DNA from: Methanotorris igneus Kol 5
Lineage (GTDB): Archaea; AGJL01; Methanococci; Methanococcales; Methanococcaceae
Assembly: GCF_000214415.1 (NCBI RefSeq)
Contig: NC_015562.1
Coordinates: forward strand, 496,001 to 560,000
Length of the DNA: 64,000 bases
Direction of reading: 5' to 3'
The position numbers were made by a program, and so were the translations under genes. Positions 43,952 through 62,442 of the stretch are shown here, one piece after another; positions within the stretch are counted from its first letter, which is position 1; every line of letters begins with the position of its first letter. A model generated the notes under the pieces. That model had not been told where the DNA came from, ran no database searches, and worked only from the letters and a program-made list of their open reading frames with translations.

Positions 43952-44785
43952 TCACTCCAATCCATTCAATCTATACAAATACTCCCTAGCAAAGCATCCC
44001 TTAGACTTAACCTTAAAAAGTTCTCCATTAAAATTCTCAATATTTCCCATATAAAAATGGCCTTCCAAAGTAGGGCATGGATAGATATCTCCAACTTCAT
44101 TAACAAATAATAAATCTCCCCTATTTAAAAAACAATAATCCCATTTTCTTTGATAAAGATTTTTTATATAAACTGGATATTTAGATAAGTTATTAAGAAC
44201 TTTTTCAAACTCCCTAATATTTGGCATTAATTTTAAATCCTCTCTCTTCTTAGGTTTTAATAAATCAAAACTAAAGCTCTTAACTCCTAATGCAATTAGA
44301 TAATTAACAAACTCCTCCAAATGAGGAAGGTTTTTATTTGTTATTACAATAGTAACTCCAAAAGGAATGTTGTATTCTTTCAATAAGTATATTCCTTTTA
44401 GGGTGTCTAATGTAGAAGATCCCCCCTCTTTATAAGGCCTTAATACATCATTAACCTCTAAACCATCAATGCTAACTCCTACATTTATATTTAACTCCTT
44501 AATTTCTTCTATATAATCACTTAGCAAAGTTCCATTTGTTTGAATAGCATATCTAAAATTTCCTTTATCTTCTGTATAATTAACAACTTTCTCAATCAAT
44601 TTGAAATTTAATAATGGTTCTCCTCCAGTAAATTGAATCTTTATATTATCATCAAAATTTAAGAGGTAGTTAATGGCTTTCTTAGCTATTCTAAATTCCA
44701 TATCTTTATTATTTTTATTTAAAGAGTAGCAGTATGTGCAATTCAAATTACACCTATCTGTTATCTTTAAAATTAGAAATTTCAT
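43952..44785 (-). CDS. Radical SAM protein coupled to the CobN-like chelatase
   Basis: This 277-residue radical SAM enzyme has the [4Fe-4S] motif CNLNCTYC near residues 12-19, the GGEP motif in QFTGGEPLLNF, and further cysteines near the C-terminus (DYCFLNRG, IYPCPTLEG, KSKGCFA) that could bind a second cluster as in SPASM/twitch proteins. ATG 44785 overlaps the stop of the CobN-like gene by four bases, so the two are translated together. A role in tetrapyrrole modification or opening, or in maturing a partner, is inferred from context only. Confidence 0.88.
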   Translation of the reverse strand: MKFLILKITDRCNLNCTYCYSLNKNNKDMEFRIAKKAINYLLNFDDNIKIQFTGGEPLLNFKLIEKVVNYTEDKGNFRYAIQTNGTLLSDYIEEIKELNINVGVSIDGLEVNDVLRPYKEGGSSTLDTLKGIYLLKEYNIPFGVTIVITNKNLPHLEEFVNYLIALGVKSFSFDLLKPKKREDLKLMPNIREFEKVLNNLSKYPVYIKNLYQRKWDYCFLNRGDLLFVNEVGDIYPCPTLEGHFYMGNIENFNGELFKVKSKGCFAREYLYRLNGLE

Positions 44786-47700
44786 AATTTCTCCTCTATC
44801 AATCCTTCTATTTCTAAGTATTTCTTCCTTAACTTTTCTTTCATCTTATCATCAGCTTTCCACATGCCTCTTTCTATAGCCTCTAATAGCCTTTCAGTTA
44901 TGTTTAAGAGAGCATAAGGATTATTTTCTCTAAAAAATTGTTCCATATCTTTATCAAAAACATACTTCTCAGCTATCTCCTCATACATCCAATCGTCTAT
45001 TATATTTGATGTGGCATCCCATTGAAAGATATGGTCAATATACTTTGAAAAGTCACTTGCCCCTTTATAACCATGCCTTTTAAGCCCTTCAATCCACTTA
45101 GGATTTAAAATCTTAGTCCTAAATATCTGTTTTCCTTCCTCTTTTAAATGCTTAGTCTTTATCTTATTTGGATTTGAAGTGTCTCCAATATAGCTCTTTG
45201 GTTGCTTTTTTGAATAATATGTTACAGCAACTATCATCCCCCCATGATAACTATTAAAATCATCTCCTTCAAATATATCCCACTCTTGGCTATCTTCATT
45301 CTTAACAGTTAGCTCTATTTTTGATAATCTATTAATAAACTCCTCCTTAGCCTCCTTTCCATAAATCCCCTTTCCATAGGCATAACCTCCCCACTCAACA
45401 TAAACTTTAGCCAAATCTTCCAACGATTGCCAGTTCTTGCTCTCCAACAAATCAGCAACTCCAGCCCCATAACATCCTGGCTTGCATCCAAATATCCTAT
45501 ACAAAGAGGTTTCTCTTGCTGTCCTCTCATCCACACCTTTCTTTATCTTCTCCTCAACATCTCTCTTATAATGCTTTCTTATAAAGTTCATTTCATCTGG
45601 TTCATCCAAATTAGCAACCATCTTTATAGCTTCATCTATCAAATCAATAACCTGTGGAAAAGTATCTCTAAATAAACCACTAATTCTTAGAGTAACATCA
45701 ATCCTTGGTCTTCCTAACTCCTCCAATGGGATAACCTCTAAACCTACAACTTTTCCATGTTTCCAAACAGGCCTAACCCCTAAGAGATAGAGAATTTCTC
45801 CAATATCATCTCCTTTTGTTCTCATTGTTGGTGAGCCCCAAACAATTATTCCAACATATTCTGGATACCTTCCTTCTTCTTCTAAGTATTTATTTAATAA
45901 ATCTTCAGCTAACTTCTTTCCCGTCTCATAGGCTCCCTTGCTGGGAATCTCCTGAGGATTGCAGGAATAGAAGTTTCTTCCAGTAGGTAGGCAGTTTATA
46001 TCTTTTGTAGGAGCTCCAGCTATTTTTGGTGGAATGTATTTGCCTTCTAAGGCATTAACGGCATTCTCTATCTCCTCATTAACCCTCATTAAATCCCTGT
46101 GAATCTTTGAAACTATCTTTAAAATCTCTCCAATTTCCTCATTCACTTTTATAGTTTTTAAATTATCTATCTCTTTCTCATTAAAACCTTTCTCCATAAA
46201 TTCCTTTAATAAATTTAATCCAATCTCATTTATTTTATCTATAATTTTATGATTCTTCCCCTTATTTTTATTTAGCTCTTCCCAATCATAGCCTAAGGTC
46301 TTAGCTAATCTCTCCAAATAATTAAATTGGTATCTAACAATCATAAATAGCATGTTAATTAGTTTATCTCCTTTTAGAGGAACTCCCATTATATGCAAGC
46401 CCTCATTTATCTGCCTGTTCTTTAACTCCTCTAAATAATCATGGATTTTATTTAATGAACTTTCAAAGTTTTCTTCATTAATATTTTCCCCAATAATTTT
46501 CCCATCTAATAAATCCTCATCTAACTTCAATTCTCTAATTTTATTTAAAATCTCTTTTTTTAGAAACTCTTTTTTCTCTTTATTTTCTGCCTCATAATAC
46601 TCATCAATGTTTTTTTCCAACTCTTCCAAATCTCCATATAAGTCAGATACTGTCATTGGGGGGATTAGATGGCTTATTATTGTTGCATAGCCCCTCCTCT
46701 TTGCCTGTGTTCCCTCTCCAGGATTGTTAACTATGTAGGGATAAATATTTGGCAGCTCCATACAAATATCTGGATAACAATCTTTAGACAATCCAGCCCC
46801 TTTCCCTGGAAGCCATTCTAAACTTCCATGCTTTCCTATATGCATTACTGCATCTGCTTTAAAAACATCCTTAATCCATTTATAAAAGGCAATATAGTAG
46901 TGTGTTGGTGGCATGTCTGGAGAGTGATATATGGCAGAGGGATTTTCTCCGAAGCCCCTTGGTGGCTGAACAGAGATAAAGATATTCCCATTTATTATTC
47001 CTGGAATAATTAACTCTCCATTAAAATTCATGACATCTCCAGGAATTGCACCCCAATTTTTTATTAACTCTTTTTTAACTTTTTCAGATAATGAATTAAA
47101 CCACTTCTCATAATCTTCCTTCTTTATTTTTCCAACAGCCTTTTTTATTATCTCCTCTGTCAAAAATCTCTTATCATTTGTAGGATATCTTAAAAGCTCT
47201 TTAATTAACTCAGTTCCATTTTTATATATTTTATCAACAACAAAGCCCCTCTTTTTTAATTCTTTTAGAATATTTAATACACTTTCTGGGCTATCTAATC
47301 CAAAGGCACTTGCTATTTTATCATTTCTTGGTGGATAGTTGTGAAAAATTATCGCTATTCTTTTTTCACTATTTTTCTTTAATTTTAAATTTGTATATTT
47401 TAATGCTAAATCAACAATCTTCTCAGCCCTATCTTTTATTGCCCTATACTTTATAATTGGAACTCCAACATCACCATCTTTAACCTTCTCTTTTCCACCA
47501 ATTGGGAAGTGGATTATAGCTCCATCAAACTCTGGCATAGCCATTCCAATAACCAAATCAATTGGATTTATTGACATTGATTTTTCCCAATCTTTAATAA
47601 ATCCAGTGCTAACAATCCCCTGCAAAATTGGAACATCTAAATCTTTTAAAAATTCTGGTTCATCCTTTAAAATATCTACCTTAACTCCCATAGAAAGAGT

Positions 47701-48465
47701 GAACATGGTGGTATTTATTAAAACATGGATAAATGGTTTCCCATCTTTATAAAAGAATCTTTTAAACGTTTCCAATATTCCCAAACTTCCCAATTCATTT
47801 TTTAAATGAGATGTGAAAACTGCTACAGGTATGGCATCCTTTTTTTCAATAATTTTAATTAAATCGTTGAGATAATCAATATTGTTTGCAATAAACCAAT
47901 TTCTATAAAATAAGATTCCAATTACTGGTTTTCCATTTATTTCTTTCCCAATATTTTTTAGATGATTTAAATAATCATCTAAAGTTTCAAAGTGTCTTCC
48001 TCCATAATAGATACCTTGCCAGGGCATAGGTTTTGGTTTTTCATAAGGAATGCTTTTGTCTCCAAACTTATTGGCTAAATATAATAAGAGATTTTTGTAA
48101 TTTTCAATCCCTTCATAACCCAAATATTTTATAACTTCTTTTTTAATTTCCTCACTTACTGTTGTAGCCTCATCCAAATCTGGATGAACTTCATTTAATG
48201 TAGGGAGTGGAAGGAAAGGAATGCTATTTTTTAAGGTGAATTCTTTTAATTCATCAAAGTATTTAAATGCACTTTTTCCTCCCATGAGTTTTGTAAATAC
48301 AATGTTGGCATCTTTAATAAATTCTATAAATTCCTTAAACTCTTCCTCGCTACATTTGTAATCCAATATTTTAAGTTCAATTCCATACTTTTTTACTTCC
48401 TTATATGCCTCTTCAAAAACCAAATCATCACTATCCACAGTTGAAACAAACCCGATTTTTATCAT
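44782..48465 (-). CDS. cobN: CobN / Mg-chelatase H-like protein
   Basis: This 1,227-residue protein belongs to the class I chelatase large-subunit family (CobN, ChlH/BchH). Clear family segments are PRGFGENPSAIYHSPDMPPT, MHIGKHGSLEWLPGKGAGLS, NNPGEGTQAKRRGYATIISH and FRDTFPQVIDLIDEAI. These enzymes insert or, in the HmuS branch, may remove the central metal of tetrapyrroles. No CobS/CobT or ChlD/ChlI partner is present here; instead the gene sits with transport, radical SAM and ferredoxin genes, which fits uptake or salvage rather than synthesis. ATG 48465 follows GGTGAAAAT. Confidence 0.92.
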   Translation of the reverse strand: MIKIGFVSTVDSDDLVFEEAYKEVKKYGIELKILDYKCSEEEFKEFIEFIKDANIVFTKLMGGKSAFKYFDELKEFTLKNSIPFLPLPTLNEVHPDLDEATTVSEEIKKEVIKYLGYEGIENYKNLLLYLANKFGDKSIPYEKPKPMPWQGIYYGGRHFETLDDYLNHLKNIGKEINGKPVIGILFYRNWFIANNIDYLNDLIKIIEKKDAIPVAVFTSHLKNELGSLGILETFKRFFYKDGKPFIHVLINTTMFTLSMGVKVDILKDEPEFLKDLDVPILQGIVSTGFIKDWEKSMSINPIDLVIGMAMPEFDGAIIHFPIGGKEKVKDGDVGVPIIKYRAIKDRAEKIVDLALKYTNLKLKKNSEKRIAIIFHNYPPRNDKIASAFGLDSPESVLNILKELKKRGFVVDKIYKNGTELIKELLRYPTNDKRFLTEEIIKKAVGKIKKEDYEKWFNSLSEKVKKELIKNWGAIPGDVMNFNGELIIPGIINGNIFISVQPPRGFGENPSAIYHSPDMPPTHYYIAFYKWIKDVFKADAVMHIGKHGSLEWLPGKGAGLSKDCYPDICMELPNIYPYIVNNPGEGTQAKRRGYATIISHLIPPMTVSDLYGDLEELEKNIDEYYEAENKEKKEFLKKEILNKIRELKLDEDLLDGKIIGENINEENFESSLNKIHDYLEELKNRQINEGLHIMGVPLKGDKLINMLFMIVRYQFNYLERLAKTLGYDWEELNKNKGKNHKIIDKINEIGLNLLKEFMEKGFNEKEIDNLKTIKVNEEIGEILKIVSKIHRDLMRVNEEIENAVNALEGKYIPPKIAGAPTKDINCLPTGRNFYSCNPQEIPSKGAYETGKKLAEDLLNKYLEEEGRYPEYVGIIVWGSPTMRTKGDDIGEILYLLGVRPVWKHGKVVGLEVIPLEELGRPRIDVTLRISGLFRDTFPQVIDLIDEAIKMVANLDEPDEMNFIRKHYKRDVEEKIKKGVDERTARETSLYRIFGCKPGCYGAGVADLLESKNWQSLEDLAKVYVEWGGYAYGKGIYGKEAKEEFINRLSKIELTVKNEDSQEWDIFEGDDFNSYHGGMIVAVTYYSKKQPKSYIGDTSNPNKIKTKHLKEEGKQIFRTKILNPKWIEGLKRHGYKGASDFSKYIDHIFQWDATSNIIDDWMYEEIAEKYVFDKDMEQFFRENNPYALLNITERLLEAIERGMWKADDKMKEKLRKKYLEIEGLIEEKL

Positions 48466-48582: not shown

Positions 48583-49014
48583 ATGGAAAAGAAAAAAGAA
48601 CTTTTAAAGAAAATTAGGGAATTTATGATTTTAAATTTGGAAATTAAAAAACTTTCAAAGGAATTAGGAATTAATGAGATACATGATACTTACGAAAAAG
48701 TTACAAAACTTGTTAGAGAACCAAATAAAAAATTATATAAGATGCTTTATGATGCAGCAATGGAAATAGAATATGAAGAATTTGGTGGAAAGAAAAGGAA
48801 AGAAATCCCATGGTTCCCAAAAATAGATTATAAAAAATGCAAAAATTGTAAGAAATGCGTTGAGTTTTGCCCTAAAGGCGTCTATGATTTAGAAAATGGC
48901 AGAGTTGTTGTTAAATATCCCTACAACTGCATAATTAACTGCAATGCCTGTTCTTATATGTGTTGTGAAAACAATGCTATAATTTTCCCGGAGAATAAAA
49001 TAGAAAGATTATAA
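48583..49014 (+). CDS. Ferredoxin-like protein with two [4Fe-4S] motifs
   Basis: This 143-residue protein has a helical, lysine-rich N-terminus of about 75 residues, then the cluster motif CKNCKKCVEFCPKGVY and a second cysteine set in CIINCNACSYMCC. The second set has an unusual spacing. It is divergent from the CobN-like gene with about 115 bases between, and could supply electrons to the radical SAM or chelatase reaction. ATG 48583 follows GGTGAAAAC. Confidence 0.85.
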   Translation: MEKKKELLKKIREFMILNLEIKKLSKELGINEIHDTYEKVTKLVREPNKKLYKMLYDAAMEIEYEEFGGKKRKEIPWFPKIDYKKCKNCKKCVEFCPKGVYDLENGRVVVKYPYNCIINCNACSYMCCENNAIIFPENKIERL

Positions 49015-49087: not shown

Positions 49088-50230
49088 TTAGATGAGTTTT
49101 GATAATAGTTGATTTTTTAAATCTTTAATACTTCCATTAAATTTAATAACTTTTTTATTGCTCTTCTTAGCTTCTTCTATAAGTTTTAAATTTAATTTAT
49201 TCATTTCTCCAATTGGAAAGTTGGTATCTATTACAACATCACACATTTTTAAGTAGTTTAATGCTTTTATGTAGTTTTCCTCCGAAATTGGTTGGTATGC
49301 CTTTTCTTTAATAATCTCAACTTCCATTGTTTTTGCTACAATATAGTCAATGTCATTCTCATGTAAAACCCCACAATAAATTTTATACCCGCTCTTAACT
49401 AAATATCTTAAAACATTCGCCCCGCTACCCCCACCACAAACAACAAAAACTTTTTTGTCGGCAGTATTTTCATTTTTTAATTCAAAGTAACCAATTTCTT
49501 TGCAGAAATTTGCATTTTTTATATTGTAAAGGTTATTTACTGTTTCTTTATCCATAACATCTTCTGGATGTCCATAAGCTATTATTTTGCCATCTTTGAT
49601 TAGTGCTATTTTGTCAGCAATTCTTAAAGCAAGCTCTATGTCATGAATTGTCACAACTATGGCAAGATTATTTTCTATTGCTAATTTTCTCAGCAACAAA
49701 GTAAGTTCTATCTTATGTCTTGCATCTAAGAAGGATGTAGGTTCATCTAAAATTAAAACCTTTGGTTCCTGAGCAAGAGCTCTTGCTATCATTATCTTCT
49801 GCCTTTCCCCATCACTCATTTCAAGGAAGTTTTTTTCAAGTAGATGTAGTGCATTAACCGCCTTTGCAGAATTTATGATAATTTCCTTATCTTTCTCTGA
49901 TAATCTTCCAAATAAATCTGTATATGGATGCCTCCCTATTGCAATTATGTCAAATCCTGTTAAATTTCCAGGATTTACCCTCTCTGTTAAAACCACGGCC
50001 ATTTTTTTAGCAAGTTGAGAAGGTTTTAGTCTATGTATTATATTTGAATTCAAATAAACAACTCCTTTTATGGGTTCTAAATATGTTGCTATACACTTTA
50101 ACAGTGTTGATTTTCCAACTCCATTTGGGCCTATTATTGCCAAAATTTCCCCTTCTTTAACTTCTAAGTTTACATTATTAACAACAACCCTCTTATGATA
50201 TCCAACGGCAAGATTTTCTGTTTTTAACAT
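49088..50230 (-). CDS. BtuD/FepC-type ABC transporter ATPase with extra C-terminal domain
   Basis: This 380-residue protein starts with a standard ABC ATPase of about 255 residues: Walker A GPNGVGKST near residue 38, signature MSDGERQKIM, Walker B VLILDEPTS and the switch His in VTIHDIELA. An additional C-terminal domain of about 120 residues begins VFVVCGGGSGANVLRYLVKS and looks like a Rossmann-type nucleotide-binding fold. The ATPase would power the two BtuC-like permeases encoded 10 kb away on the other strand. ATG 50230 follows GGTGATTAA. Confidence 0.92.
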   Translation of the reverse strand: MLKTENLAVGYHKRVVVNNVNLEVKEGEILAIIGPNGVGKSTLLKCIATYLEPIKGVVYLNSNIIHRLKPSQLAKKMAVVLTERVNPGNLTGFDIIAIGRHPYTDLFGRLSEKDKEIIINSAKAVNALHLLEKNFLEMSDGERQKIMIARALAQEPKVLILDEPTSFLDARHKIELTLLLRKLAIENNLAIVVTIHDIELALRIADKIALIKDGKIIAYGHPEDVMDKETVNNLYNIKNANFCKEIGYFELKNENTADKKVFVVCGGGSGANVLRYLVKSGYKIYCGVLHENDIDYIVAKTMEVEIIKEKAYQPISEENYIKALNYLKMCDVVIDTNFPIGEMNKLNLKLIEEAKKSNKKVIKFNGSIKDLKNQLLSKLI

Positions 50231-50290: not shown

Positions 50291-52300
50291 TTATGGGAAT
50301 AACAATTCTCTTTTATAAATTAATAGCAATCCTATCAAAAATCCAATTAAAGAAACTACAGTATTTGCAATATCATCCTCAATTTCAACTTTTTTTGTGA
50401 TCGTGTAATTTTTTACAATTTTATTTACTTTTATGATAACTTTTGACTGGTTGATTGTTAAATTATAATGATAATCGTTAAACTTTATCATTTTTGGACT
50501 AATAACTTCAATATTTTCTTTAAAATTCCATATGTATTTAACTAATCTTTTATAAGGTAAATGATATTCAACATATCCTTTTATTTGAGTACTTTTTGAG
50601 ATATTTATTGGAATTGAAAATGATTTTGTTTCATTTGGTAGTAATTCAAATGAAATATGTGTTTTAGCAGGATTGTAGTTAGAATAATCTGAAAAGTAAA
50701 TATATCCATAAATTTTTTCAGAGAATGGATTTGTTAAGGTAATATTGCAAAATATTGTTACATTGGATTCATTGGAGTGTATTGTTTTATTGCTAAGTGT
50801 AACATTTATTGGACTTAACTTTTTTATCTCAATTAGACATTCATCATATGAAGTAGCTCCAAATGTATCATTAACCTTTAATCTTACAAGATAAATTCCT
50901 TCTTTTTTATATCTATGGGAAGGATTTGCATTTGTTGAAGTTGAGTTATCACCAAACTCCCAATAGTAGTTAAGTTTATCCCCTTCATTATCATAACACA
51001 AGGAATAGAAGTTAACATCATAGTTATCAACTATCTCAAATACAAAATATGCCTTTGGTGGGGTGTTGTTTTCCCTTGGAATTATGTGGATGATTTTTTT
51101 ATCTTTTAATGGAACTTCAACAATCCCATTTTCATCAAACAAATAAATCTGAGAGATTTTTATCTCTGTTGTTACATTTTCATTTTTTATTGGTTCTATC
51201 CAAAAAGATAAAATGCTAAAATTTCCACTTGTAGTTCCATTTATTTTAATGTCAAAATCTATTGTGTCGTTTTCAACTGTCCAATTTTTATCTATAGTGG
51301 ATAAACTTGTTGATATATCACTAATTTTCAATAATGTTGAGTTATAGATTATTTTTCCCTTAATTTCAGATATATTTGCATTTAAGTTTTTTGCTTCAAT
51401 GTAAATGAATCCTTTGTCTCCATAAGAGATGTTCTTTTCAGTTGTTGAAAAACCTACATAACTTTCTACATTAGCTCCACCAATTGTGAAGTTTGCTGGT
51501 TTTATAATTGTATTGTTCCCATTTATTTTTATAGATGCGTTAATTATGTAAGTTCCTTCTTTACTTGTGAAGAATGTCAATTTCATCAAATCAAAATTTT
51601 CTTTTGAGGTATTTAACTTAGCAAAGAAATTTAAACTATTATTGTTTAAATTCAAATCTACATTTGAAATGTTATTTTCTAAATAATAGAAGTTTAAACC
51701 TACAATGCTTAAATTTGGGTAATATATTGTTCCAGTTATATTGTATGTATTTTCTTTTGCGTTTTTTATTGAAATGAGAACATCAAAATTCTCATTTAAC
51801 TTTGGATTTATGGGGGTTATCTCAACAACCGTTGAATTTAACCCAACAATATTTACTTCAACAGAGTTGTAGGTTGCATCTAAGGTATTTCCATTTACAT
51901 CTGATAACTTAGGTTTTTGAGTTATTGTGTATGTTCCGTTATCTAATGCCTTAAATCTTAAAGTTGCTATTGTAAAGTTTCCATGTGGAGGGTTATCAAA
52001 CCATACAAGTGATATGGATATTTTTCCATTACTTACAGAAATATCTTTCAAGTTTGCATTATTGGCTATATCACTTAAAACAATGTCATCCTTAGTTATG
52101 TTTAATGCACTTGGAAAATAGATAATATCTTCAAATCCGCCTAAATTTTCTGATACATTTGCATATAATGTTAAATTAAAGTAGTCATACTCACTTACAC
52201 TAACATTTTCAGGAGTTAATATAACTTCATCTCCACTCACACGGAATAGAAGAGGTAAAAATAAAATTATAAATAACATTGGAAATTTCGACTTCATCAT
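50291..52300 (-). CDS. Surface protein with three cohesin-like domains, PKD domain and C-terminal anchor
   Basis: This 669-residue protein has a signal peptide (FPMLFIILFLPLLFRVSG) and three cohesin-like beta-sandwich domains at about 25-150, 155-275 and 280-405. The first carries SVSNGKISISLVWFDNPPHG and NFTIATLRFKAL. A PKD domain follows at about 410-490 (YYWEFGDNSTS, PSHRYKKEGIYLVRLKVND), then a glycosylation-rich region and a membrane helix (VSLIGFLIGLLLIYKREL). It should present cohesin domains outside the cell to dockerin-bearing partners. It is read with the ABC ATPase and two smaller cohesin genes. Confidence 0.8.
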   Translation of the reverse strand: MMKSKFPMLFIILFLPLLFRVSGDEVILTPENVSVSEYDYFNLTLYANVSENLGGFEDIIYFPSALNITKDDIVLSDIANNANLKDISVSNGKISISLVWFDNPPHGNFTIATLRFKALDNGTYTITQKPKLSDVNGNTLDATYNSVEVNIVGLNSTVVEITPINPKLNENFDVLISIKNAKENTYNITGTIYYPNLSIVGLNFYYLENNISNVDLNLNNNSLNFFAKLNTSKENFDLMKLTFFTSKEGTYIINASIKINGNNTIIKPANFTIGGANVESYVGFSTTEKNISYGDKGFIYIEAKNLNANISEIKGKIIYNSTLLKISDISTSLSTIDKNWTVENDTIDFDIKINGTTSGNFSILSFWIEPIKNENVTTEIKISQIYLFDENGIVEVPLKDKKIIHIIPRENNTPPKAYFVFEIVDNYDVNFYSLCYDNEGDKLNYYWEFGDNSTSTNANPSHRYKKEGIYLVRLKVNDTFGATSYDECLIEIKKLSPINVTLSNKTIHSNESNVTIFCNITLTNPFSEKIYGYIYFSDYSNYNPAKTHISFELLPNETKSFSIPINISKSTQIKGYVEYHLPYKRLVKYIWNFKENIEVISPKMIKFNDYHYNLTINQSKVIIKVNKIVKNYTITKKVEIEDDIANTVVSLIGFLIGLLLIYKRELLFP

Positions 52301-52312
52301 TATCCCCCAATA

Positions 52313-53131
52313 TTATCTAAATTTTGATAGGATAAAGCCAAAAAGAATCCCAGCCAATATTCCAGATAACAAATTAAAACCCAAAAATTTAAAACTACCC
52401 TTTTTTTCCACAACTACATTAACTATTGGTTGATATTCTGTTAGATTAATTTCCTTAACAATAACTTCCGGTTCCTTTATATTGGGAGTTATGTAGATTC
52501 TGTTTATTATTGTTGATGATGAAGATGATTCATATTCTTCCACATCTTCTTTCAGTTTCATCGTTGTATTTGTTACATTCCCAGCGCTTTTTATTGTTAT
52601 ATTTGCTCCGAGGAATTTTGTATTTGGATATTTTTTGAATGTTTTAGTGTAATAATCATAATATTCATTAACTCCATCATACTTATAACCCAATGTTGAA
52701 CTGACAGACCCTGATAAATTTAATTGAACTTCTCCTTCTTTAATTGGAATAAACATCACTTCTCCAATACAAAAATCTTCTTCAATAGGCTTATCAAAAA
52801 CAACTTTAGCATTAAATACACCATCTTTAAATTCATAGGATTTTAATTTCTCTTTTTTACAAATATCACTCCAATTAAACCCATATGGCTTTAAATAATC
52901 AGAGTAATTTATACAAATACTAACTCCACGGCATCCACCATCTTCCATTCCATTGTACTCGTCTTTAATTTCACCAATTTTTGGGATATTTTCTACCGTT
53001 ATGTTAAATTTAATAATCTCTCCATTTGAAACAACCTTTTCAGGGACTAATTTAACGTAGATATCCTCTGCATAAGAAATATCTAAAAAAATAGAAATAA
53101 GGGTTAAAAGAACTAAAAAACGCTTATTCAT
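52313..53131 (-). CDS. Membrane-anchored single cohesin-like protein
   Basis: This 272-residue protein has a signal peptide (RFLVLLTLISIFLDISYA), one cohesin-like domain at about 22-180 with disulfide-capable cysteines (DGGCRGVSICINYSDYLKPY), a Ser-rich linker and a C-terminal membrane helix (LSGILAGILFGFILSKF). ATG 53131 follows GGTGGTAGGTA and overlaps the upstream gene by eight bases. It would anchor one dockerin partner directly to the membrane. Confidence 0.75.
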   Translation of the reverse strand: MNKRFLVLLTLISIFLDISYAEDIYVKLVPEKVVSNGEIIKFNITVENIPKIGEIKDEYNGMEDGGCRGVSICINYSDYLKPYGFNWSDICKKEKLKSYEFKDGVFNAKVVFDKPIEEDFCIGEVMFIPIKEGEVQLNLSGSVSSTLGYKYDGVNEYYDYYTKTFKKYPNTKFLGANITIKSAGNVTNTTMKLKEDVEEYESSSSSTIINRIYITPNIKEPEVIVKEINLTEYQPIVNVVVEKKGSFKFLGFNLLSGILAGILFGFILSKFR

Positions 53132-53681: not shown

Positions 53682-53835
53682 GTTATCACCAAATTAAAGA
53701 TTACTTTATTAATAATAAAAATTACCGTAAAATATATATACTTATTGCTATAATCTTAACTAAAGATTTTTTTAATACTATTAACCATTTGTTTAAAATA
53801 ATAATAATCTAATATAAATGTTAAATGGTGGTATG

Positions 53836-55188
53836 ATGCCGAAAAATATTAATACCACTGGGTATATATTACTTACCGTTTTCTTACTATTAGTGCCTGT
53901 ATATGCAGAAGGTGATTACAACTATAGATTGGGTGATGTAAATAAGGATGGTTCCATTAATATTGCAGATGTGGTTTATCTCTTCAAACATAGAGACCTC
54001 AACATAGAAGATGGTGATTTAAACGCAGATAATAGTATAGATATTGCCGACGTCGTTTATCTCTTTGTTAATTATCAAAAAATGAGGGAGCCAATTCACT
54101 ACGCCCAAAATATAAAAATAACGTACTATGATGAAAATGGAAATATAGTAAATCCATACAATGGAGAAAGCTATGCTTATAAAATAGTTGAAGATGCCAC
54201 TGGGCAGAGATTTTTATTAAAAAATGAAACTCAGCCAATTCCTTCCTGGGCTGAAGGAAAATACGACAAGGTAATTAATGTTCCATTAAAAAAGGTCGTT
54301 GTAATGAGTTCTACCCACATAGCTTTAATGGAACCACTAAACAATGACGGTTCAGTAATCAGTTCAGTGAAGGGAATAATGTGGGGAGGAACATACAAGT
54401 GGTACTTTAAAGACATTGAAGAAGGGCTTAATAATGGCTCAATAATTGACGTTGGTTCATCATGGAATCCAAATTATGACTTGATCATCAATATCTCACC
54501 ACAGGTTGTATTTGTCTATCCAGGATACAGTGGAGATAAAATAATTGAAAAATGTAAAGAACTTAATTTAACTTACGTTGCTGATGCAGAATACTTAGAA
54601 AATTCCTATCTTGCAAGATGTGAATGGGTAAAGATGTTTGCAGCATTTTACAACAAGGAAGACGTTGCAAGCAAATACTTCACAAGAATAGAAAAGAGAG
54701 CATTGAACGTTAAAAGATTAACAAGAAACTGTGATAGGCCATTAGTGGCATGGGGTAAGAATTACCCAAGTTATGGAGGAACCTACGTACCTAAAGCACA
54801 ATCTTATGTGGCTAAGGGAATAATGGAAGACTGCAAAGGAGATTATATATTCAAAGACATTCCAGGAACTGGCAGCGAGTGCATAAGTTATGAGACCTTT
54901 GCAGAAAGAGCAAAAGATGCAGATATTTGGGTGATTCCATCAAGCACAGCATGGTTGTCAAACTTCAAAGAAGACCATCCAGGATACGAGAACTTCAAAG
55001 CTGTGCAGAATGGTAGATTGTTCTGCATAAGTGGTGATTATTGGCAACTTGGATTGATGAATACGGATGAAGTACTGTACGATTTAGCAACAATAATACA
55101 CCCTGAAGTGTTTAAAGGAAGAACCACCCATTACTTCCTCAAATATGATCCAAATACAAATACTGCTGAACCATATACAGCAGAATAA
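53836..55188 (+). CDS. Dockerin-bearing ABC substrate-binding protein 1 (BtuF/FepB-like)
   Basis: This 451-residue exported protein has a signal peptide (GYILLTVFLLLVPVYA), then at about 32-82 a dockerin domain with two calcium-loop repeats (DVNKDGSINIADVVYLF and DLNADNSIDIADVVYLF). A class III periplasmic-binding domain follows (VPLKKVVVMSSTHIALMEPL, ISPQVVFVYPG, LATIIHPEVFKG). Such binding proteins capture metal chelates, hemes or cobamides. ATG 53836 lies after GGTGGT; ATG 53833 and the open frame from 53818 are alternatives. Confidence 0.9.
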   Translation: MPKNINTTGYILLTVFLLLVPVYAEGDYNYRLGDVNKDGSINIADVVYLFKHRDLNIEDGDLNADNSIDIADVVYLFVNYQKMREPIHYAQNIKITYYDENGNIVNPYNGESYAYKIVEDATGQRFLLKNETQPIPSWAEGKYDKVINVPLKKVVVMSSTHIALMEPLNNDGSVISSVKGIMWGGTYKWYFKDIEEGLNNGSIIDVGSSWNPNYDLIINISPQVVFVYPGYSGDKIIEKCKELNLTYVADAEYLENSYLARCEWVKMFAAFYNKEDVASKYFTRIEKRALNVKRLTRNCDRPLVAWGKNYPSYGGTYVPKAQSYVAKGIMEDCKGDYIFKDIPGTGSECISYETFAERAKDADIWVIPSSTAWLSNFKEDHPGYENFKAVQNGRLFCISGDYWQLGLMNTDEVLYDLATIIHPEVFKGRTTHYFLKYDPNTNTAEPYTAE

Positions 55189-55245: not shown

Positions 55246-58200
55246 ATGAAATGGAAAACAGCGTTATTATCGATTTTGGTTATATCTCTTATGGGAGTGT
55301 ATGGTGAAAATGTAACAGTAGAATTAGTCCCATCTAATTTAAATGTAAATTTAGGGCAGAGTTTTAATTTAACCTTAGAAGTAAAAAATGTTCCAAATGG
55401 AACTATTTCTGATGGATACAATAACTATTCAGGATATTGTAGTGGAATTGAAACCTATATTTATTTTAACTCAAGTGCATTGAATATATCTGAGAATGAC
55501 ATCGTCTTAAGTGGTGATATAACCAATAATATAAAAGATAAAAGTATTTCTGTGAGTAACGGAAGAATATGGATATCTATATGGTTTAGCAATCCTCTAC
55601 ATGGAAACTTTACAATAGCTACTTTAAGATTTAAAGCATTAGAACAATCAGATACAGAAGTTACCTTAGGGGGAACAGTAGTTTCAAATTCAGATGGAGA
55701 TTATACATGGAAAGTTAGTAATAACAACTTAATTTTGAAAAATTCACATGTAAAAATAGTTGTAGAACCTATTGCCGACTTATTAGTACCTAAAACTGTA
55801 AATGCAGAACTTGGAGATAATGTAACCATTTCAGTGGTTGTTGCTCCAAAAGAAAATAAAACTTTAAAGACAATTGAAGGAACATTGTCATTCGATAAAA
55901 ATATGTTAGAGCCTTTCAATATATCATCAAGTGTAGGAAATGTTTTCTTCAACAGTTCAAACAACTTTTTCAAAATAAGCAATTTAAACCAATCAACAAA
56001 CTTCACAATTAACATCACCTACAATGTGATAAATGTTGGAAATACCACAGTAAAATTGGATAATATCTATATGGAAGATATTAATGGAAGTTACGTAAAG
56101 GGCATTTCATCAAATGCAACCACAATAATAATTCCGGGGCCTGATTTAGTAGTGGAGGAAATAATTCCAGTATCACTAAAAGCATATACAAATAACACAA
56201 TACCTGTATTAATAAAGAATATTGGAGAGAGAAATGTAACAGGCAACTTCTCAGTTAAGTTGTTGGCAGATACATATGAAATAGGAACCTCCACAGTTAA
56301 TGGATTAAATGTTGGGGAAGTTAAGGAAATAAACTTTACATTCATGCCTATGGAGGAAAGGAATTATACACTTTGTGCCTTAGTCGATTGTGCCAATGAT
56401 GTAAAAGAGATTAATGAAAATAATAACAAATATGTTATTAAATTATATGCTACAGAGGAGCCAATAAGTGTAAATTTAATATCATCAACAAACTTAACAA
56501 AAACTGAAAAAACTTTTGAAGTAAATATAACATTAAACAACATAACATCTGACAGACCTGCAAAGGCAATAGAGGGAGTTTTAACATATAATCCTAAGAT
56601 ATTAAAATGCATAAACTTCACATTCCTTATAAATTCATCTGAAATAAATGGAACATTGTTACAAAATGTAACATATGAAAATGATAAAGTAATATTCAAA
56701 TTAATGGATGGAATTATTAACCATTCCATCGTTGTTGCAACTGCTAAGTTCGAGGCATTAGATGTTGGAAACTCAGATATTGAATTGTCAGATTTAGTTG
56801 TATCTGACATAAATGGTTATAAATTCAATAAAATATCAACAAACAAAGTAAACATTGTTGTACAAGGACCAAACATTAAAATAGCTAACATTAATGTACC
56901 AAATCCATCAATATACAGAATTCCAACAACAATAAACATTACAGTAACAAACAATGGACATCAAGACGCAAAACCATTCGATATTGTGTTGTATGCAGAC
57001 ACTGAAGAAATTGGAAAAGTAACTGTTAATGGATTAAATATTAGCCAAAGTAAAACGATAACACTCAATTGGACTCCAGATGATATAAAAACATTCACAA
57101 TAGTGGCATTAGCTGATCCAAATAATGCAATTAAAGAAGAAAATGAAAGCGATAACAAGCTTGTTAAGAAAATAAATGTTGTTGAAATCCCAGTTTGGGT
57201 TAATATATATAACACAACACCAATTGTCAATGGAACATTTAATGCTACAATAGAAGTTAATGGAATAAATGAAAGATTATGTAGTGGATATGATGGAAAG
57301 TTGATATTCAAAAACTTAAAGATTGAAAGCATAAAGCTTATTGGAACAAACAACTACACAATAAACAACAATGAATTAATATTTACAGGATACAATTTCA
57401 CAAAATCTGGAAACTTCAAAATAGCAAACATAACATTTAAGATAATTGATGAAAATAAAAGTTACTCAGCAATATTGAAGTACATGGTTTTATCAGACAA
57501 AGATGGATATAAGTTTGAGAGAGTATTTATCAACAACACAATATTAGATGAAAACTTACAAAAAGTCTTTAAAGGTCTGCATATTGAAGCAGATGTACTT
57601 GATAAAGTGGATATTGACAATGTGAAGTTAGAATCTGTTGGAAATATTAACATAACAGCATTGCCTATTAAAATTGGAAATGTGGCGGATGAGATTACTA
57701 TTCCAAAAGTTAGTGAAAACTTATCAATAAACATTACGGATGATGTTATATCAACGATGAGTTTAATTTCTAACGAAGCAGAATCTCTAAGTGAAATCAC
57801 AAAAGTTATTGACAATGAAAAAGAGTTAAATGAAACACTAAATAAAATAACAGAAGATATTAAGCCAGTATTATGTGTTGGATTTAACATAACAAATATA
57901 ACAAAAGAAGAACCAAAAGTAGAAATTATTGGAAATGAGAAAGTTATAAAAGCAAAAGTAAAACTTAAAGTAGAAAATATATCCAATAAAGGATTTACCA
58001 TAATAAGAATTCCAATAGGAACTTTAAAAGTTAAAGAAATAACCATAAACAACGGAACAGAAAACATAACCTTAAAAGAAAACGATATAACAAGTACAAT
58101 TGGATGGTATAGAATTCCGGTTAGTGGAGTGTTAGAGATAACCTTAATTAAAGACCCAGAAGTAAGCATTGAGCTTGCAGCAACATTACCAGTATCTACA

Positions 58201-58689
58201 TCAACAACTACAACTTACTACAGCGGTGGAGGAGGCCATCACAGAGCTATTGAGCAATACCCAGGAGTAGCAGAAGATATAAAATCAGAGAAGATAAAAG
58301 AAATGGTTTATAAGGCTAAGATAATCCTCGGCTCAGAAGTAGATAACAACTTATCTGCAAAATACCTTAAGAATACCACTGAATTAGTGAATCAGTCATT
58401 AGAAATAAAAGAAGATTGTATTTTAATTGGAGGGCCAGTAGCTAACCCAGTAGTTAAAAAATACCTTTGGACGTTCCCAGTTAAAGTAACTAATGACTAT
58501 CCAGGTAAGAATAGAGGGGTTATTGAGAAACAAATAATAAACGGTCATACAGTTATCTTATTAGCAGGTTCAGACAGATGGGGAACAAAGGCAGCGGTTG
58601 AATACTTCAAAACATTAGATGATATTCCAGATGAGCCAATATTCGTAGAATGGAAAGATGGGAAGGCTGTGAAGATTGAAAAGCCATAA
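55246..58689 (+). CDS. Multi-cohesin scaffold protein with S-layer-type C-terminus
   Basis: This 1,147-residue exported protein has a signal peptide, cohesin-like domains at about 20-165, 172-300, 403-535 and 642-775, and CARDB-like spacers at about 303-400 and 540-640 (NIGERNVTGNFSVKLLADTY). After a Thr/Gly linker near 983-1000, the final 145 residues contain LIGGPVANPVV, NDYPGKNRGVIEK and LLAGSDRWGTKAAVEYFK, the signature of methanococcal S-layer protein C-termini. It would sit in the cell wall and hold several dockerin partners. It lies between two dockerin-bearing binding protein genes. ATG 55246 follows GGTGACAGTGGG. Confidence 0.88.
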   Translation: MKWKTALLSILVISLMGVYGENVTVELVPSNLNVNLGQSFNLTLEVKNVPNGTISDGYNNYSGYCSGIETYIYFNSSALNISENDIVLSGDITNNIKDKSISVSNGRIWISIWFSNPLHGNFTIATLRFKALEQSDTEVTLGGTVVSNSDGDYTWKVSNNNLILKNSHVKIVVEPIADLLVPKTVNAELGDNVTISVVVAPKENKTLKTIEGTLSFDKNMLEPFNISSSVGNVFFNSSNNFFKISNLNQSTNFTINITYNVINVGNTTVKLDNIYMEDINGSYVKGISSNATTIIIPGPDLVVEEIIPVSLKAYTNNTIPVLIKNIGERNVTGNFSVKLLADTYEIGTSTVNGLNVGEVKEINFTFMPMEERNYTLCALVDCANDVKEINENNNKYVIKLYATEEPISVNLISSTNLTKTEKTFEVNITLNNITSDRPAKAIEGVLTYNPKILKCINFTFLINSSEINGTLLQNVTYENDKVIFKLMDGIINHSIVVATAKFEALDVGNSDIELSDLVVSDINGYKFNKISTNKVNIVVQGPNIKIANINVPNPSIYRIPTTINITVTNNGHQDAKPFDIVLYADTEEIGKVTVNGLNISQSKTITLNWTPDDIKTFTIVALADPNNAIKEENESDNKLVKKINVVEIPVWVNIYNTTPIVNGTFNATIEVNGINERLCSGYDGKLIFKNLKIESIKLIGTNNYTINNNELIFTGYNFTKSGNFKIANITFKIIDENKSYSAILKYMVLSDKDGYKFERVFINNTILDENLQKVFKGLHIEADVLDKVDIDNVKLESVGNINITALPIKIGNVADEITIPKVSENLSINITDDVISTMSLISNEAESLSEITKVIDNEKELNETLNKITEDIKPVLCVGFNITNITKEEPKVEIIGNEKVIKAKVKLKVENISNKGFTIIRIPIGTLKVKEITINNGTENITLKENDITSTIGWYRIPVSGVLEITLIKDPEVSIELAATLPVSTSTTTTYYSGGGGHHRAIEQYPGVAEDIKSEKIKEMVYKAKIILGSEVDNNLSAKYLKNTTELVNQSLEIKEDCILIGGPVANPVVKKYLWTFPVKVTNDYPGKNRGVIEKQIINGHTVILLAGSDRWGTKAAVEYFKTLDDIPDEPIFVEWKDGKAVKIEKP

Positions 58690-58868
58690 ATTTTCTACAA
58701 TATTATTTTTGTTTTGTAATCATAAAAATCTAAATTTTATTCCTACTTTTAACAGTATTTAAAAAAATAAATCATAAATTATATATATCTATTTTATCAA
58801 ATTATTACTACAATGTTATTTAATAAAATTATTGACATAAGGTTTTAATAATTATGGGGTGGATAGCG

Positions 58869-60200
58869 ATGGTTAAAAAAATACTTAAAATACTTTCAGC
58901 TATGTTGATGATTTTATTAACACCAATAGTATTTGGAGAAAATATTGGAGATGTAAATGGGGATGGTTCAATAAATATTGCAGATGTAGTATATCTTTTT
59001 AAGCATAGGGACGTTGGATTAGAAAAAGGAGATTTAAACTGTGATAATTCAGTTGATATTGCAGATGTTGTGTATCTATTTAACAACTACCAAAAGTGGA
59101 GAGAACCTGTAGTATTCGCTAAAAACTTTGAAATAGAATATTATGACGCAAATGGAAATCCAGTAAGTTATGATGATAATTGGGCATATAAAATTATAAC
59201 AACAAAATACGGAAATGAGATATATAATAAATACTGCATTGTAAGAGAAGGAGAAGAACCACCAAGCAATTTACCTTCTGATGTAAAAGTCATCTACGCT
59301 CCTGTAAAAAAAGTTGCTACATTAAGTGCATTCCAAGTAGCAATGCTTGAAGCATTAGATAACGACAGTGTAAGGGAATCTATAAGAGGGGTATCTGAAT
59401 ATACATACACCAAAATAAAGGATTATGGAGTATTCCCCAAATTAAAATCTTATGTCGATAATGGAAATATTGTTCCAATTGGAAAATGGGGTGCTATAGA
59501 TAAAGAGGCTTTATTGAACATAAGTCCAGATATAGTATTCCTTGCGTGGACCCATGGTTATTTAGCTACGGATATGAATACAGTTTCAGATTTAGGTATG
59601 AATTATTTAGTAACTGTTGAATCAAATGAACCTGACTTCCTTGCAAAGGCAGAATGGGCAAAAGTTTATGCTGCATTTTATAACTTAGACAAGAAAGGAA
59701 ATGATTTCTTACAAAAAGTTTGGGAAAAGAGAAATGAATTAATAAGAAAAACAAGAAACGCCGCTTACAGACCAAAAGTTGCTATGCTCTACTGGTCACC
59801 ATATTCTGGACCTTGGGTATATTGTGCCCAAAACTACTATGCAAAATGGATATTGGATGTTAAAGGAGATTACTGCTTCCTTGATATTCCAGGAACTTCT
59901 TATGTAAATCTTGACAAAGAAACAACCTTGGAACATATTAATGGATGTGATGTGTTCATTTACATGAACTGGAACTCACTGAATGAGCCAATGGACACAC
60001 TTGATGAATTAAAAGAAAGAAGACCTGACTTAGCACCAGTATTAGACAGTGCAAAGAGGGTATATACAACAAAATTCAGTTACTCATATGATGGAAATGT
60101 AAATATGGACTTATTAATGGAAGATTTTGCAAGGATGATACATCCAGAATGCTTTGATGGTGGAGATAGCAACTTACATTACTTCAAGAAGTTGAAATAA
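58869..60200 (+). CDS. Dockerin-bearing ABC substrate-binding protein 2 (BtuF/FepB-like)
   Basis: This 443-residue paralogue of the protein encoded at 53836-55188 has a signal peptide (ILKILSAMLMILLTPIVFG), an almost identical dockerin at about 26-76 (DVNGDGSINIADVVYLF, DLNCDNSVDIADVVYLF) and a BtuF/FepB-type binding domain (APVKKVATLSAFQVAMLEAL, NISPDIVFLAWTHG, FARMIHPECFDG). The two binding domains differ more than the dockerins, so they may bind different ligands. ATG 58869 after GGGGTGGATAGCG is preferred over 58854. Confidence 0.9.
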   Translation: MVKKILKILSAMLMILLTPIVFGENIGDVNGDGSINIADVVYLFKHRDVGLEKGDLNCDNSVDIADVVYLFNNYQKWREPVVFAKNFEIEYYDANGNPVSYDDNWAYKIITTKYGNEIYNKYCIVREGEEPPSNLPSDVKVIYAPVKKVATLSAFQVAMLEALDNDSVRESIRGVSEYTYTKIKDYGVFPKLKSYVDNGNIVPIGKWGAIDKEALLNISPDIVFLAWTHGYLATDMNTVSDLGMNYLVTVESNEPDFLAKAEWAKVYAAFYNLDKKGNDFLQKVWEKRNELIRKTRNAAYRPKVAMLYWSPYSGPWVYCAQNYYAKWILDVKGDYCFLDIPGTSYVNLDKETTLEHINGCDVFIYMNWNSLNEPMDTLDELKERRPDLAPVLDSAKRVYTTKFSYSYDGNVNMDLLMEDFARMIHPECFDGGDSNLHYFKKLK

Positions 60201-60384
60201 TCCAATTTTTGATATATAGCATATTAATTTTTTAGGAACCAAGTCCATAAAAAATGTTTTAATATTTTTTAACTTTTTTACTTAAAATTTAAATTTATAA
60301 ATTTAACATATTTTTATATTTTTTCAAAATAAATATAATAACAATATTATATATAATCATTGAAGTTGAATAAGGTGATACATT

Positions 60385-61428
60385 TTGAAAATTAGAGTGG
60401 GCTTACTCTCGATATTTCTTTTATTTATATTATTTTCTTTGTTAATATTGAGTATAACAAACGGAACTATTAAAATAGAACCAAAAAATTTTTACAACTA
60501 TGTCTTAGAAGGCACTACTGGAAATCCCATATATGATAAAATAATTGAAAAGTGCAGAATACCAAGGACTGTTGGAGCGGTATTTGCAGGAATGGGGTTG
60601 GCTGTTGCAGGCTTGTTAATGCAAAGTTTGTTTAGAAATCCTCTTGCAGACCCCTACCTAATAGGAGTATCGGGTGGGGCCTCTTTAGGAGTAGCACTTT
60701 ATGTTTTTACATCTTTACTCTTCAAATTTGGCATACCCCACTCCATATGGGGATTTATTATATCTGCTTATTTAGGTTCATTATTATCCATGTTTGTTGT
60801 ATTATCTCTCGCAAAGAAGGTTAAACAGATTACTACACTTTTAATTGTTGGTCTTATGATAGGTTATATTTCATCTGGATTAATTACAATTGTTATTGCA
60901 TTTAGTGATTTTGTTGGGGTTAACAATGATGTTTTAGCAAGTTTTATGATGTGGGGATACGGTTCTTTGAGTTCATTAACAATGAAACAGTCATTAATAA
61001 TGGGAGTTTTAGTAGTTATATGCTGCTTTATAACATACTCTTTATCAAAATTCCTTGATGCCTATTTACTTGGAGAAAATTACGCAAAAAGTGTAGGAAT
61101 TGATATTAAAAAATTAAGAATTTTGATTATTTTAATATCTTGCATGATTACGGCAACTATTGTAGCATTTGCTGGACCTATAGGGTTTATTGGGTTGGTA
61201 TGTCCAATAACTGCAAGATTGTTGTGTGGAACGTCAAAACACATTTATGTAATCCCAAACGCCATGTTAATTGGGGCAATTTTCTTAATAGTGGCAGATA
61301 TTCTTGTGAGGCCAGGTATTGTAATTCCAACAACAAGTTCAGAATTGCCTTTAATGTGTCCTTTGGCAATAATAGGATCTCCAATTGCTATAATCATATA
61401 CATAAAAAGAAAAATTATGGGGATTTAA
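60385..61428 (+). CDS. BtuC/FecCD-type ABC transporter permease 1
   Basis: This 347-residue membrane protein of about ten helices has the family motifs [40 protein letters not shown] and, near the C-terminus, [19 protein letters not shown]. It forms the channel for metal-chelate or cobamide import. It starts with TTG 60385 after GGTGATACATT. A TATA-like sequence near 60343 lies in the gap after the second binding protein. The next permease begins one base after its stop. Confidence 0.93.
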
Positions 61429-62442
61429 ATGAGAAAAACTCTTATTATTTTGTTGTTAGTGATATTAACTTCTTCACTCTTTGTCTATGGAATTTTTAAA
61501 GGAGGAAATGCAAAATCGATAAGTATGGAAGATGTCAAGAATTTTTTGTTGTATGGAAGTACTGGAGATAAATTTAAAGATATATTAATATGGAAAATTA
61601 GAATTCCACCATTAATAACTGCCATAATAGTTGGTGCAGTTTTGTCTGTTTCTGGATTAAAGCTTCAAACATTATTTAGGAATCTTTTAGCTTCTCCTTA
61701 CACAACAGGCATTTCAAGTGGGGTTGTTCTTGGGGTGGCAATTACTATATTCCTTGGATTTTCATTTTCAAGTTTTTTGGGGGTATCTGATTATGTTGTG
61801 GGTGGCTGGATAGGAGCTGCTATAGCATTGGTTATTATATTGTTTCTTGCTTCAAAAATAAAGGATGTTAGTGGAGTGTTGGTTTGTACGTTGTTGTTTG
61901 GATATTTCTATTACGGGATTGAAAGTTATCTCATAAATTTTGCAGATAACGTGCAAATTCAAGAATTTTGGATGTATCTACAAGGCAGTTTTTCAGGTAC
62001 AGGATGGGAAGACATAAAATTAATGGTAGTTTGTTCATTAATCTTTCTGATTTCATCCTATTTACTCTCAAAACACTTAAATGCCTTATTGTTTGGTGAA
62101 AATTATGCAAAAAGTTTTGGTTTGAATATAAAACAAGTTAGAATAATAATTTTATTCCTTTCAGGTTTTATTGTTGGTGTGGTAATACCATTTGTAGGTT
62201 TAATTCCATTTATTGGAATTGCCTCTCCATATATTGCAAGGATTTTGATGAAAACATCAGACCACAGATGGACAATTCCTGCATCAATGTTAATTGGAAT
62301 GGTTATTTCACTAATGTGTTATTTAGTGTCAATAAAACTATTTGCTCCAAGAGTAGTTCCTGTAAAATCTATCTTAGATTTGTTAGGTGGGTTGTTGGTA
62401 GTTTATTTAATATATAAGTCAGAAAAAAATATGGCTCTATAA
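61429..62442 (+). CDS. BtuC/FecCD-type ABC transporter permease 2
   Basis: This 337-residue permease is homologous to the one just upstream: KIRIPPLITAIIVGAVLSVS, LQTLFRNLLASPYTTGISSG and VIPFVGLIPFIGIASPYIAR mark the FecCD family. It probably pairs with permease 1 as a heterodimer, as FecC and FecD do, although two homodimeric systems sharing one ATPase are also possible. ATG 61429 follows directly on the upstream stop. Confidence 0.92.
   Translation: MRKTLIILLLVILTSSLFVYGIFKGGNAKSISMEDVKNFLLYGSTGDKFKDILIWKIRIPPLITAIIVGAVLSVSGLKLQTLFRNLLASPYTTGISSGVVLGVAITIFLGFSFSSFLGVSDYVVGGWIGAAIALVIILFLASKIKDVSGVLVCTLLFGYFYYGIESYLINFADNVQIQEFWMYLQGSFSGTGWEDIKLMVVCSLIFLISSYLLSKHLNALLFGENYAKSFGLNIKQVRIIILFLSGFIVGVVIPFVGLIPFIGIASPYIARILMKTSDHRWTIPASMLIGMVISLMCYLVSIKLFAPRVVPVKSILDLLGGLLVVYLIYKSEKNMAL

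What the first reader, a model, noticed from the sequence alone, without database searches (positions are those of the whole stretch)
43952..62442. Cohesin-dockerin scaffold built around a tetrapyrrole/metal-chelate uptake system
Seen in sequence: two BtuF/FepB-type binding proteins each start with a two-loop dockerin, and four exported proteins in the same locus consist of cohesin-like domains with membrane anchors or an S-layer-type end. The same locus holds BtuC-type permeases, a BtuD-type ATPase, a CobN-like chelatase, a radical SAM protein and a ferredoxin. Known: cohesin-dockerin pairs assemble cellulosomes, and scattered archaeal examples exist (Archaeoglobus), but I know of no described case that docks ABC binding proteins to the cell surface. 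Inference: this is a surface-docked capture machine for cobamides, hemes or similar metal complexes.
Basis: partly seen in the sequence, partly recalled or inferred. Interest (0 to 1): 0.88.

Follow-up and report, generated by a model that had tools for sequence, protein, structure and literature searches.

The report
Cohesin-dockerin tether for metal-cofactor uptake proteins
A heat-loving methane-making archaeon appears to hold the two proteins that catch metal-containing cofactors at its surface with the cohesin-dockerin clip best known from cellulose-degrading bacteria; relatives lacking the clip fix the same proteins to the membrane with a lipid instead, which suggests a concrete job for archaeal cohesins, whose function has been unclear.

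Summary
All dockerins in the genome (two, on two BtuF/FepB-type binding proteins) and all nine cohesin domains (four exported proteins) sit in one 10-kb divergent gene block with BtuC x2, BtuD and CobN. The cohesin-like domains are cohesins: a family profile finds solved cohesins at E=5e-11, and an AlphaFold2 model best matches the Archaeoglobus cohesin 2xdh (E=4e-9). Pfam's cohesin model misses them. Comparison across 36 Methanococcales genomes supports the function: 24 genomes have dockerin-bearing binding proteins and cohesins, 1 dockerin only, 0 cohesin only. In 5 genomes without cohesins, both binding proteins are ordinary lipoproteins without dockerin. In three genomes the two dockerins are 99% identical in DNA while the protein bodies are 30-35% alike (gene conversion); the first cohesins of CohA and CohS are homogenised too. 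Best reading: docking replaces the lipid anchor and displays metal-chelate binding proteins at membrane and S-layer. The ligand (corrinoid most likely) is unproven and no binding has been measured. Partial precedents exist: dockerins on ABC binding proteins in ANME archaea, and cohesins beside transporters in Methanococcus maripaludis, there guessed to hold a hydrogenase.

The parts
53818..55188 (+). SBP1: signal peptide without lipobox, dockerin (residues 39-86), BtuF/FepB-type binding protein body
   Evidence: likely start 53833
53932..54075 (+). dockerin of SBP1, two calcium loops GDVNKDGSINIADVVYLF / GDLNADNSIDIADVVYLF
58854..60200 (+). SBP2: signal peptide, dockerin (residues 32-79), binding-protein body of a second, divergent clade
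58947..59090 (+). dockerin of SBP2
53124..53681 (-). CohC: one cohesin (53274-53597) plus C-terminal TM helix (residues 161-183)
52313..53131 (-). CohB: one cohesin (52670-53032) plus C-terminal TM
   Evidence: TM read from the sequence
50291..52300 (-). CohA: three cohesins (51869-52198, 51518-51802, 51122-51430), PKD domain, C-terminal TM
   Evidence: TM read from the sequence
55246..58689 (+). CohS: scaffoldin-like, four cohesins (55345-55722, 55807-56112, 56500-56841, 57226-57531) with CARDB domains between, S-layer outer domain at the C-terminus
60385..61428 (+). BtuC-type permease 1
61429..62442 (+). BtuC-type permease 2
49088..50230 (-). BtuD-type ATPase with an extra C-terminal domain, colinear with the corrinoid-transporter ATPase model PRK09536 (224.5 bits, below its cut-off of 537)
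44782..48465 (-). CobN-type class I chelatase large subunit, no ChlI/ChlD partner in the locus
48583..49014 (+). ferredoxin, conserved beside CobN in a subset of relatives
43952..44785 (-). radical SAM protein, weakly linked to the locus
53682..53817 (.). divergent promoter region between the cohesin operon and the SBP operon, AT-rich with conserved TATA-like stretches

Best explanation
This is a type II ABC importer (two binding proteins, two BtuC-type permeases, BtuD-type ATPase) whose binding proteins are held at the cell surface not by a lipid but by a calcium-type dockerin-cohesin clip. Three cohesin proteins sit in the cytoplasmic membrane by a C-terminal helix (CohA, CohB, CohC) and keep the binding proteins near the permease; a fourth, CohS, carries four cohesins and an S-layer domain and would display the same binding proteins in the S-layer. 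Shown: gene content, cohesin and dockerin identity, confinement of all genomic copies to this locus, mutual exclusion of dockerin and lipobox among relatives, gene conversion of dockerins. Inferred: that the pairs bind (about 0.85); that S-layer and membrane sites share the same binding proteins (about 0.6); that the ligand is a metal tetrapyrrole, corrinoid most likely (about 0.5), handled by the adjacent CobN by metal insertion or removal.
For: Cohesins: profile vs PDB best E=5.1e-11, 30 of the top 31 distinct sequences are cohesins or cohesin-bearing proteins; AF2 pLDDT 87.8, Foldseek rank 1 = 2xdh Archaeoglobus cohesin, ranks 1-21 all cohesins. Dockerins; the SBP profile also finds PDB dockerins 5lxv_B, 5n5p_B, 2y3n_B. 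One locus holds every dockerin and every cohesin of the genome. Across 36 Methanococcales: dockerin+cohesin 24, dockerin only 1 (G015), cohesin only 0, neither 5. The five without cohesins keep BtuC, BtuD and both SBPs, but all ten SBPs have a lipobox cysteine and no dockerin, whereas dockerin-bearing SBPs show no lipobox (one chance-like pattern match inside a signal peptide, G023). The order CohS-SBP1 / CohC-CohB-CohA recurs across genera. G013, G024, G034: dockerins of SBP1 and SBP2 99% identical in DNA, with 53 and 47 consecutive identical codons in G013 and G034, bodies 30-35% identical in protein. Within-genome dockerin identity 83.5% vs 71% between orthologues; CohA-1/CohS-1 64% within vs 49% between. 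G005 and G006 keep dockerins with CohC as sole cohesin, so one membrane cohesin may suffice.
Against: No binding data and no complex model. The dockerin/lipoprotein switch is one lineage, in two genes, so the genome counts are not independent. G015 has a dockerin but no detectable cohesin even at E<=5. Nine divergent cohesins for two similar dockerins is unexplained. Foldseek does not separate BtuF from siderophore or heme binders. The window CobN is nearer to CobN (768 bits) than to the HmuS dechelatase (408 bits) and has no ChlI/ChlD beside it.
Confidence: 0.72

Rival explanations
1. Simple anchor swap: the clip only replaces the lipid anchor, keeping SBPs at the membrane; CohS and S-layer display are structural or incidental, with no shared use of binding proteins between layers.
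For: Lipoprotein orthologues in cohesin-less relatives; G005/G006 have only membrane-anchored CohC and retain dockerins.
Against: CohS is adjacent to SBP1 in most genomes, and its first cohesin is homogenised with CohA's first cohesin inside genomes, suggesting both bind the same dockerin.
Confidence: 0.25
2. The cohesins mainly anchor other exported proteins, such as an extracellular hydrogenase, as suggested for corrosive Methanococcus maripaludis.
For: Published suggestion for island V cohesins (PMC11452385).
Against: In this genome the SBPs are the only dockerin proteins; in genomes G019-G021 the confident dockerin hits are the SBPs; that paper does not mention dockerins.
Confidence: 0.06
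3. The domains are structural Ig-like sandwiches and calcium-stabilised helices that do not bind each other.
For: Identities to known cohesins are low (about 10-18%); Pfam PF00963 does not hit.
Against: Cohesins top both sequence and fold rankings; co-occurrence and parallel homogenisation of dockerins and of cohesins.
Confidence: 0.07
4. Same tether, but the ligand is a siderophore, other metal chelate or heme rather than a corrinoid (a rival only to the ligand part of the best explanation).
For: Nearest solved SBPs include CeuE, HtsA, heme binders and BtuF at similar scores.
Against: BtuD is colinear with the corrinoid-transporter ATPase model and permease 1 scores best with BtuC; a CobN homologue lies in the fetched neighbourhoods of SBP or BtuC genes in 15 genomes.
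Confidence: 0.4

Closest known systems
Bacterial cellulosome (type I/II cohesin-dockerin, scaffoldin, surface anchor)
   Same: Two-loop calcium dockerins on the cargo, multi-cohesin scaffold with a surface anchor; fold and profile match type II cohesins among others
   Different: Cargo are ABC binding proteins, not polysaccharide enzymes; dockerin is N-terminal; several cohesin proteins are membrane-anchored; archaeal S-layer domain as anchor
Archaeoglobus fulgidus non-cellulosomal cohesin/dockerin
   Same: Archaeal, hyperthermophilic; 2xdh is the best fold match
   Different: Its role is described as unclear (PMC11452385); here partner proteins and a transporter are adjacent
ANME dockerin-bearing ABC substrate-binding proteins (PMC9012536)
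   Same: Dockerins on ABC binding proteins of NikA/OppA and TroA type; multi-cohesin proteins in the same genomes
   Different: Reported as domain lists, with no locus, anchor or evolutionary test; other SBP classes as named there, although BtuF-type proteins fall in the broad TroA-like class (own knowledge), so overlap is possible
Methanococcus maripaludis Mic1c10 island V cohesins (PMC11452385)
   Same: Methanococcales cohesins encoded with siderophore and vitamin transporters, probably the same family as here
   Different: Authors propose anchoring of a hydrogenase; dockerins not mentioned
hmu heme uptake operon with CobN-like HmuS (PMC12583661) and Bacteroides BtuS (PMC6460266)
   Same: CobN-type chelatase linked to a metal-tetrapyrrole importer
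   Different: Window CobN is nearer to CobN than to HmuS; no outer-membrane system; that paper calls the role of archaeal CobN homologues unclear

Membership tests
Cohesin | cohesin beta-sandwich fold | tested here: met
   AF2 model, Foldseek ranks 1-21 cohesins, best 2xdh E=4.4e-9, TMt 0.72; modelled for CohC only
Cohesin | sequence homology to known cohesins | tested here: met
   family profile vs PDB, best E=5.1e-11, the top 18 are all cohesins
Cohesin | recognised by curated model PF00963 (a detection threshold, not a property of the fold) | tested here: not met
   no hit at E<=1 in the genome
Cohesin | binds a dockerin | not testable with these tools
Type I dockerin | two duplicated 12-residue calcium loops each followed by a helix | tested here: met
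   82 loops, N3, D5, D12 invariant; helices 49-57 and 76-90 in the SBP1 model
Type I dockerin | Pfam PF00404 above cut-off | tested here: inconclusive
   SBP2 28.1 bits (met), SBP1 17.4 bits (not met), cut-off 22.9
Cellulosome | dockerin-bearing polysaccharide-degrading enzymes | tested here: not met
   only the two SBPs carry dockerins
Scaffoldin | several cohesins on one exported, surface-anchored protein | tested here: met
   CohS four cohesins plus S-layer domain; CohA three plus TM
BtuCDF-class type II ABC importer | Peripla_BP_2 binding protein, BtuC/FecCD permeases and BtuD-type ATPase in one locus | tested here: met
BtuCDF-class type II ABC importer | cobalamin as ligand | not testable with these tools
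   structure search does not discriminate
HmuS heme dechelatase | closest to HmuS within the class I chelatases | tested here: not met
   CobN 7c6o 768 bits, ChlH 513, HmuS 408

The most novel reading that the evidence does not exclude
A two-storey capture relay: matched dockerins let the same metal-tetrapyrrole binding proteins exchange between an S-layer-embedded cohesin scaffold, which catches ligand outside, and membrane cohesins beside BtuCD, feeding imported cofactor to an adjacent CobN that inserts or removes the metal. This would give a general physiological role to archaeal cohesins and to orphan archaeal CobN.
Probability: 0.25. Interest if true: 0.85.

Novelty: new variant of a known kind. 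Interest (0 to 1): 0.7.

Why it matters
The function of non-cellulosomal archaeal cohesins and dockerins is described as unknown or unclear in the papers read (PMC5244752, PMC11452385). Here the partners, anchors and transporter sit together, and comparison across an order shows the clip trading places with a lipid anchor. That makes the question directly testable, including in Methanococcus, which is genetically tractable. It also offers a context for archaeal CobN homologues whose role is called unclear (PMC12583661), and an alternative to the published guess that Methanococcus cohesins hold a hydrogenase.

Tried and rejected
Pfam PF00963 for the cohesins: no hit; replaced by a family profile. 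NCBIfam gave nothing useful on the cohesin proteins scanned (CohB not scanned). The BtuD C-terminal domain has no convincing solved relative. Rfam: nothing over threshold at 43-63 kb. The phylum-wide search returned only the same 36 genomes, so spread outside the order was judged only from SBP relatives, none of which outside Methanococcales carries a dockerin. The HmuS-type dechelatase reading for CobN was weakened. Dockerin hits in the 494-516-aa proteins of G003, G023 and G034 fall in proteins that read as alkaline phosphatases and were taken as chance calcium-loop matches. Laying the whole genome in the Python box was not available. Peer et al. 2009, the main survey of non-cellulosomal cohesins, is not held, so precedence there is unchecked.
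Full report
What is there. The window is G000:C1:496001-560000 of a 1,854,197-base single-contig genome of the order Methanococcales. The size fits Methanotorris igneus as I remember it, unverified. Two divergent gene sets meet at 53,682-53,817: leftward CohC (185 aa), CohB (272), CohA (669), BtuD (380), then CobN (1227) and radical SAM (277), with a ferredoxin on the other strand; rightward SBP1 (456), CohS (1147), SBP2 (448) and two BtuC permeases. Pfam and NCBIfam confirm the transporter, CobN, radical SAM and ferredoxin parts, the CARDB, PKD and S-layer domains, and Dockerin_1 on SBP2 over the cut-off and on SBP1 under it.

Are they dockerins? Both proteins have two loops of the form D-x-N-x-D-x-x-x-x-x-x-D, each followed by a helix. 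In 82 loops from the order N3, D5 and D12 never vary. A profile of these SBPs also picks out solved dockerins. No other protein of the genome has one.

Are they cohesins? Pfam says nothing. An iterated profile shows that the four proteins share nine homologous domains. A first profile from CohC alone already ranked cohesins on top, but weakly (best E=0.06); with all nine domain types the best match to solved structures is E=5.1e-11 and the top 18 are all cohesins. The AF2 model of CohC (pLDDT 87.8) matches 21 cohesin chains first, led by the Archaeoglobus cohesin 2xdh. I count cohesin identity as shown. All nine genomic matches are in this locus.

Do they belong together? In the order, 25 of 36 genomes have the cohesins. 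Among genomes whose SBP N-terminus can be read, 24 have dockerin and cohesin, 1 (G015) has dockerin only, 5 (G002, G004, G007, G008, G014) have neither, and none has cohesin without dockerin. The five still have BtuC, BtuD and both SBPs, but all ten SBPs carry a lipobox cysteine after the signal peptide and a short linker where the others have the dockerin (in G002, G008 and G014 the lipobox of SBP1 is read by eye, as the pattern caught another cysteine or none). The SBP tree puts the lipoproteins in one clade within SBP1 and one within SBP2 (one frameshifted fragment, G033, is mislabelled there), so this is one lineage in which two genes changed together. It is a clean natural experiment but a single one, and the counts must not be read as independent.

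Concerted evolution. In G013, G024 and G034 the dockerins of SBP1 and SBP2 are 99% identical in DNA, in G013 over 53 consecutive identical codons that start and stop with the dockerin, while the bodies are 30-35% identical in protein. Over 16 genomes the two dockerins of one genome average 83.5% identity against about 71% for orthologues in different genomes. The first cohesins of CohA and CohS behave the same way, 64% within against 49% between genomes, with 96% in G031 and 89% in G013. Clade structure adds to such means, but the DNA-level tracts cannot be explained that way. Two binding proteins therefore appear to be kept in step with a shared partner, and a membrane-anchored and an S-layer-type cohesin are kept in step with each other. 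In the window itself, A1 and S1 are 54% identical and all other pairs 19-33%; why so many divergent cohesins are kept is open.

How it most likely works. SBPs without a lipid are held by cohesins on membrane-anchored CohA, CohB and CohC, and on CohS, whose S-layer outer domain would place it in the S-layer. G005 and G006, with CohC alone, suggest that the minimal device is one membrane cohesin. The ligand is inferred. The SBP1 model is a generic metal-chelate binding protein with BtuF, CeuE and heme binders all close. BtuD follows the corrinoid-transporter ATPase model PRK09536 over nearly its whole length, but under its cut-off. A CobN homologue lies near SBP or BtuC genes in 15 genomes. This CobN is nearer to cobaltochelatase CobN than to HmuS. 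The genome has a second CobN near ChlI- and VWA-type genes. A corrinoid is the best guess, about even odds.

What is known. Dockerins on ABC binding proteins, and multi-cohesin proteins, were listed for ANME archaea (PMC9012536; see also PMC5244752). Cohesins encoded with siderophore and vitamin transporters were noted in corrosive Methanococcus maripaludis and suggested to hold a hydrogenase (PMC11452385); dockerins are not mentioned in that paper. An Archaeoglobus cohesin-dockerin pair has been used as a high-affinity clip in E. coli (PMC9705933). A CobN-like protein in a heme importer operon removes metal in Bacteroidota, and the role of archaeal homologues was called unclear (PMC12583661). 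So the parts are known and a near precedent exists. The assembled locus, the anchor replacement and the conversion evidence I did not find in the papers searched.

Transfer. The locus does not follow the genome's kinship: SBP1 is 90% identical to a genome of another family (G001) but 79% to its congener G035, while the neighbouring PurP gene is 96% identical to G035 and 86% to G001. The block seems to have moved between genera as a unit.

Noticed in passing
window 49088-62442 versus 62574-63659: The uptake/cohesin block is closer to a genome of another family (SBP1 90% to G001) than to its own genus (79% to G035), while PurP next door is 96% to its own genus: likely horizontal transfer of the whole block.
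   Followed up: partly
L194:7602-16650 (G024): A second, separate cohesin-dockerin pair: a 1751-aa PKD/TED/CARDB protein ending in a classic type I dockerin, encoded next to a cohesin-plus-CARDB protein.
   Followed up: partly
L193:4844-11837 (own genome, ~607-614 kb): Second CobN paralogue with ChlI-like AAA and VWA genes nearby, unlike the window CobN, which has none; a transposase-like ORF lies between.
   Followed up: partly
L067 (G003): The CobN and radical SAM genes are broken into several ORFs in this genome although dockerin and cohesin genes are mostly intact.
   Followed up: no
L099:8052-9323 (G015): Orphan dockerin on an SBP without any detectable cohesin; this SBP has a long branch, as might follow cohesin loss.
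   Followed up: partly
L070 and L071 (G005, G006): A 1019-1024-aa exported protein without Pfam match stands where CohS would be next to SBP1; the dockerins there have an extra residue between the loops.
   Followed up: partly
window 42217-43446: TnpB-like transposon protein at the edge of the block; its N-terminal sequence recurs at L193:17559 near the second CobN, next to a resolvase-like gene.
   Followed up: no
C-termini of CohC in L077, L088, L089, L092-L097, L100: In other genera CohC ends not in a long TM helix but in a shorter tail, often ending in FGG or LGG: a different anchoring mode, unexplained.
   Followed up: no
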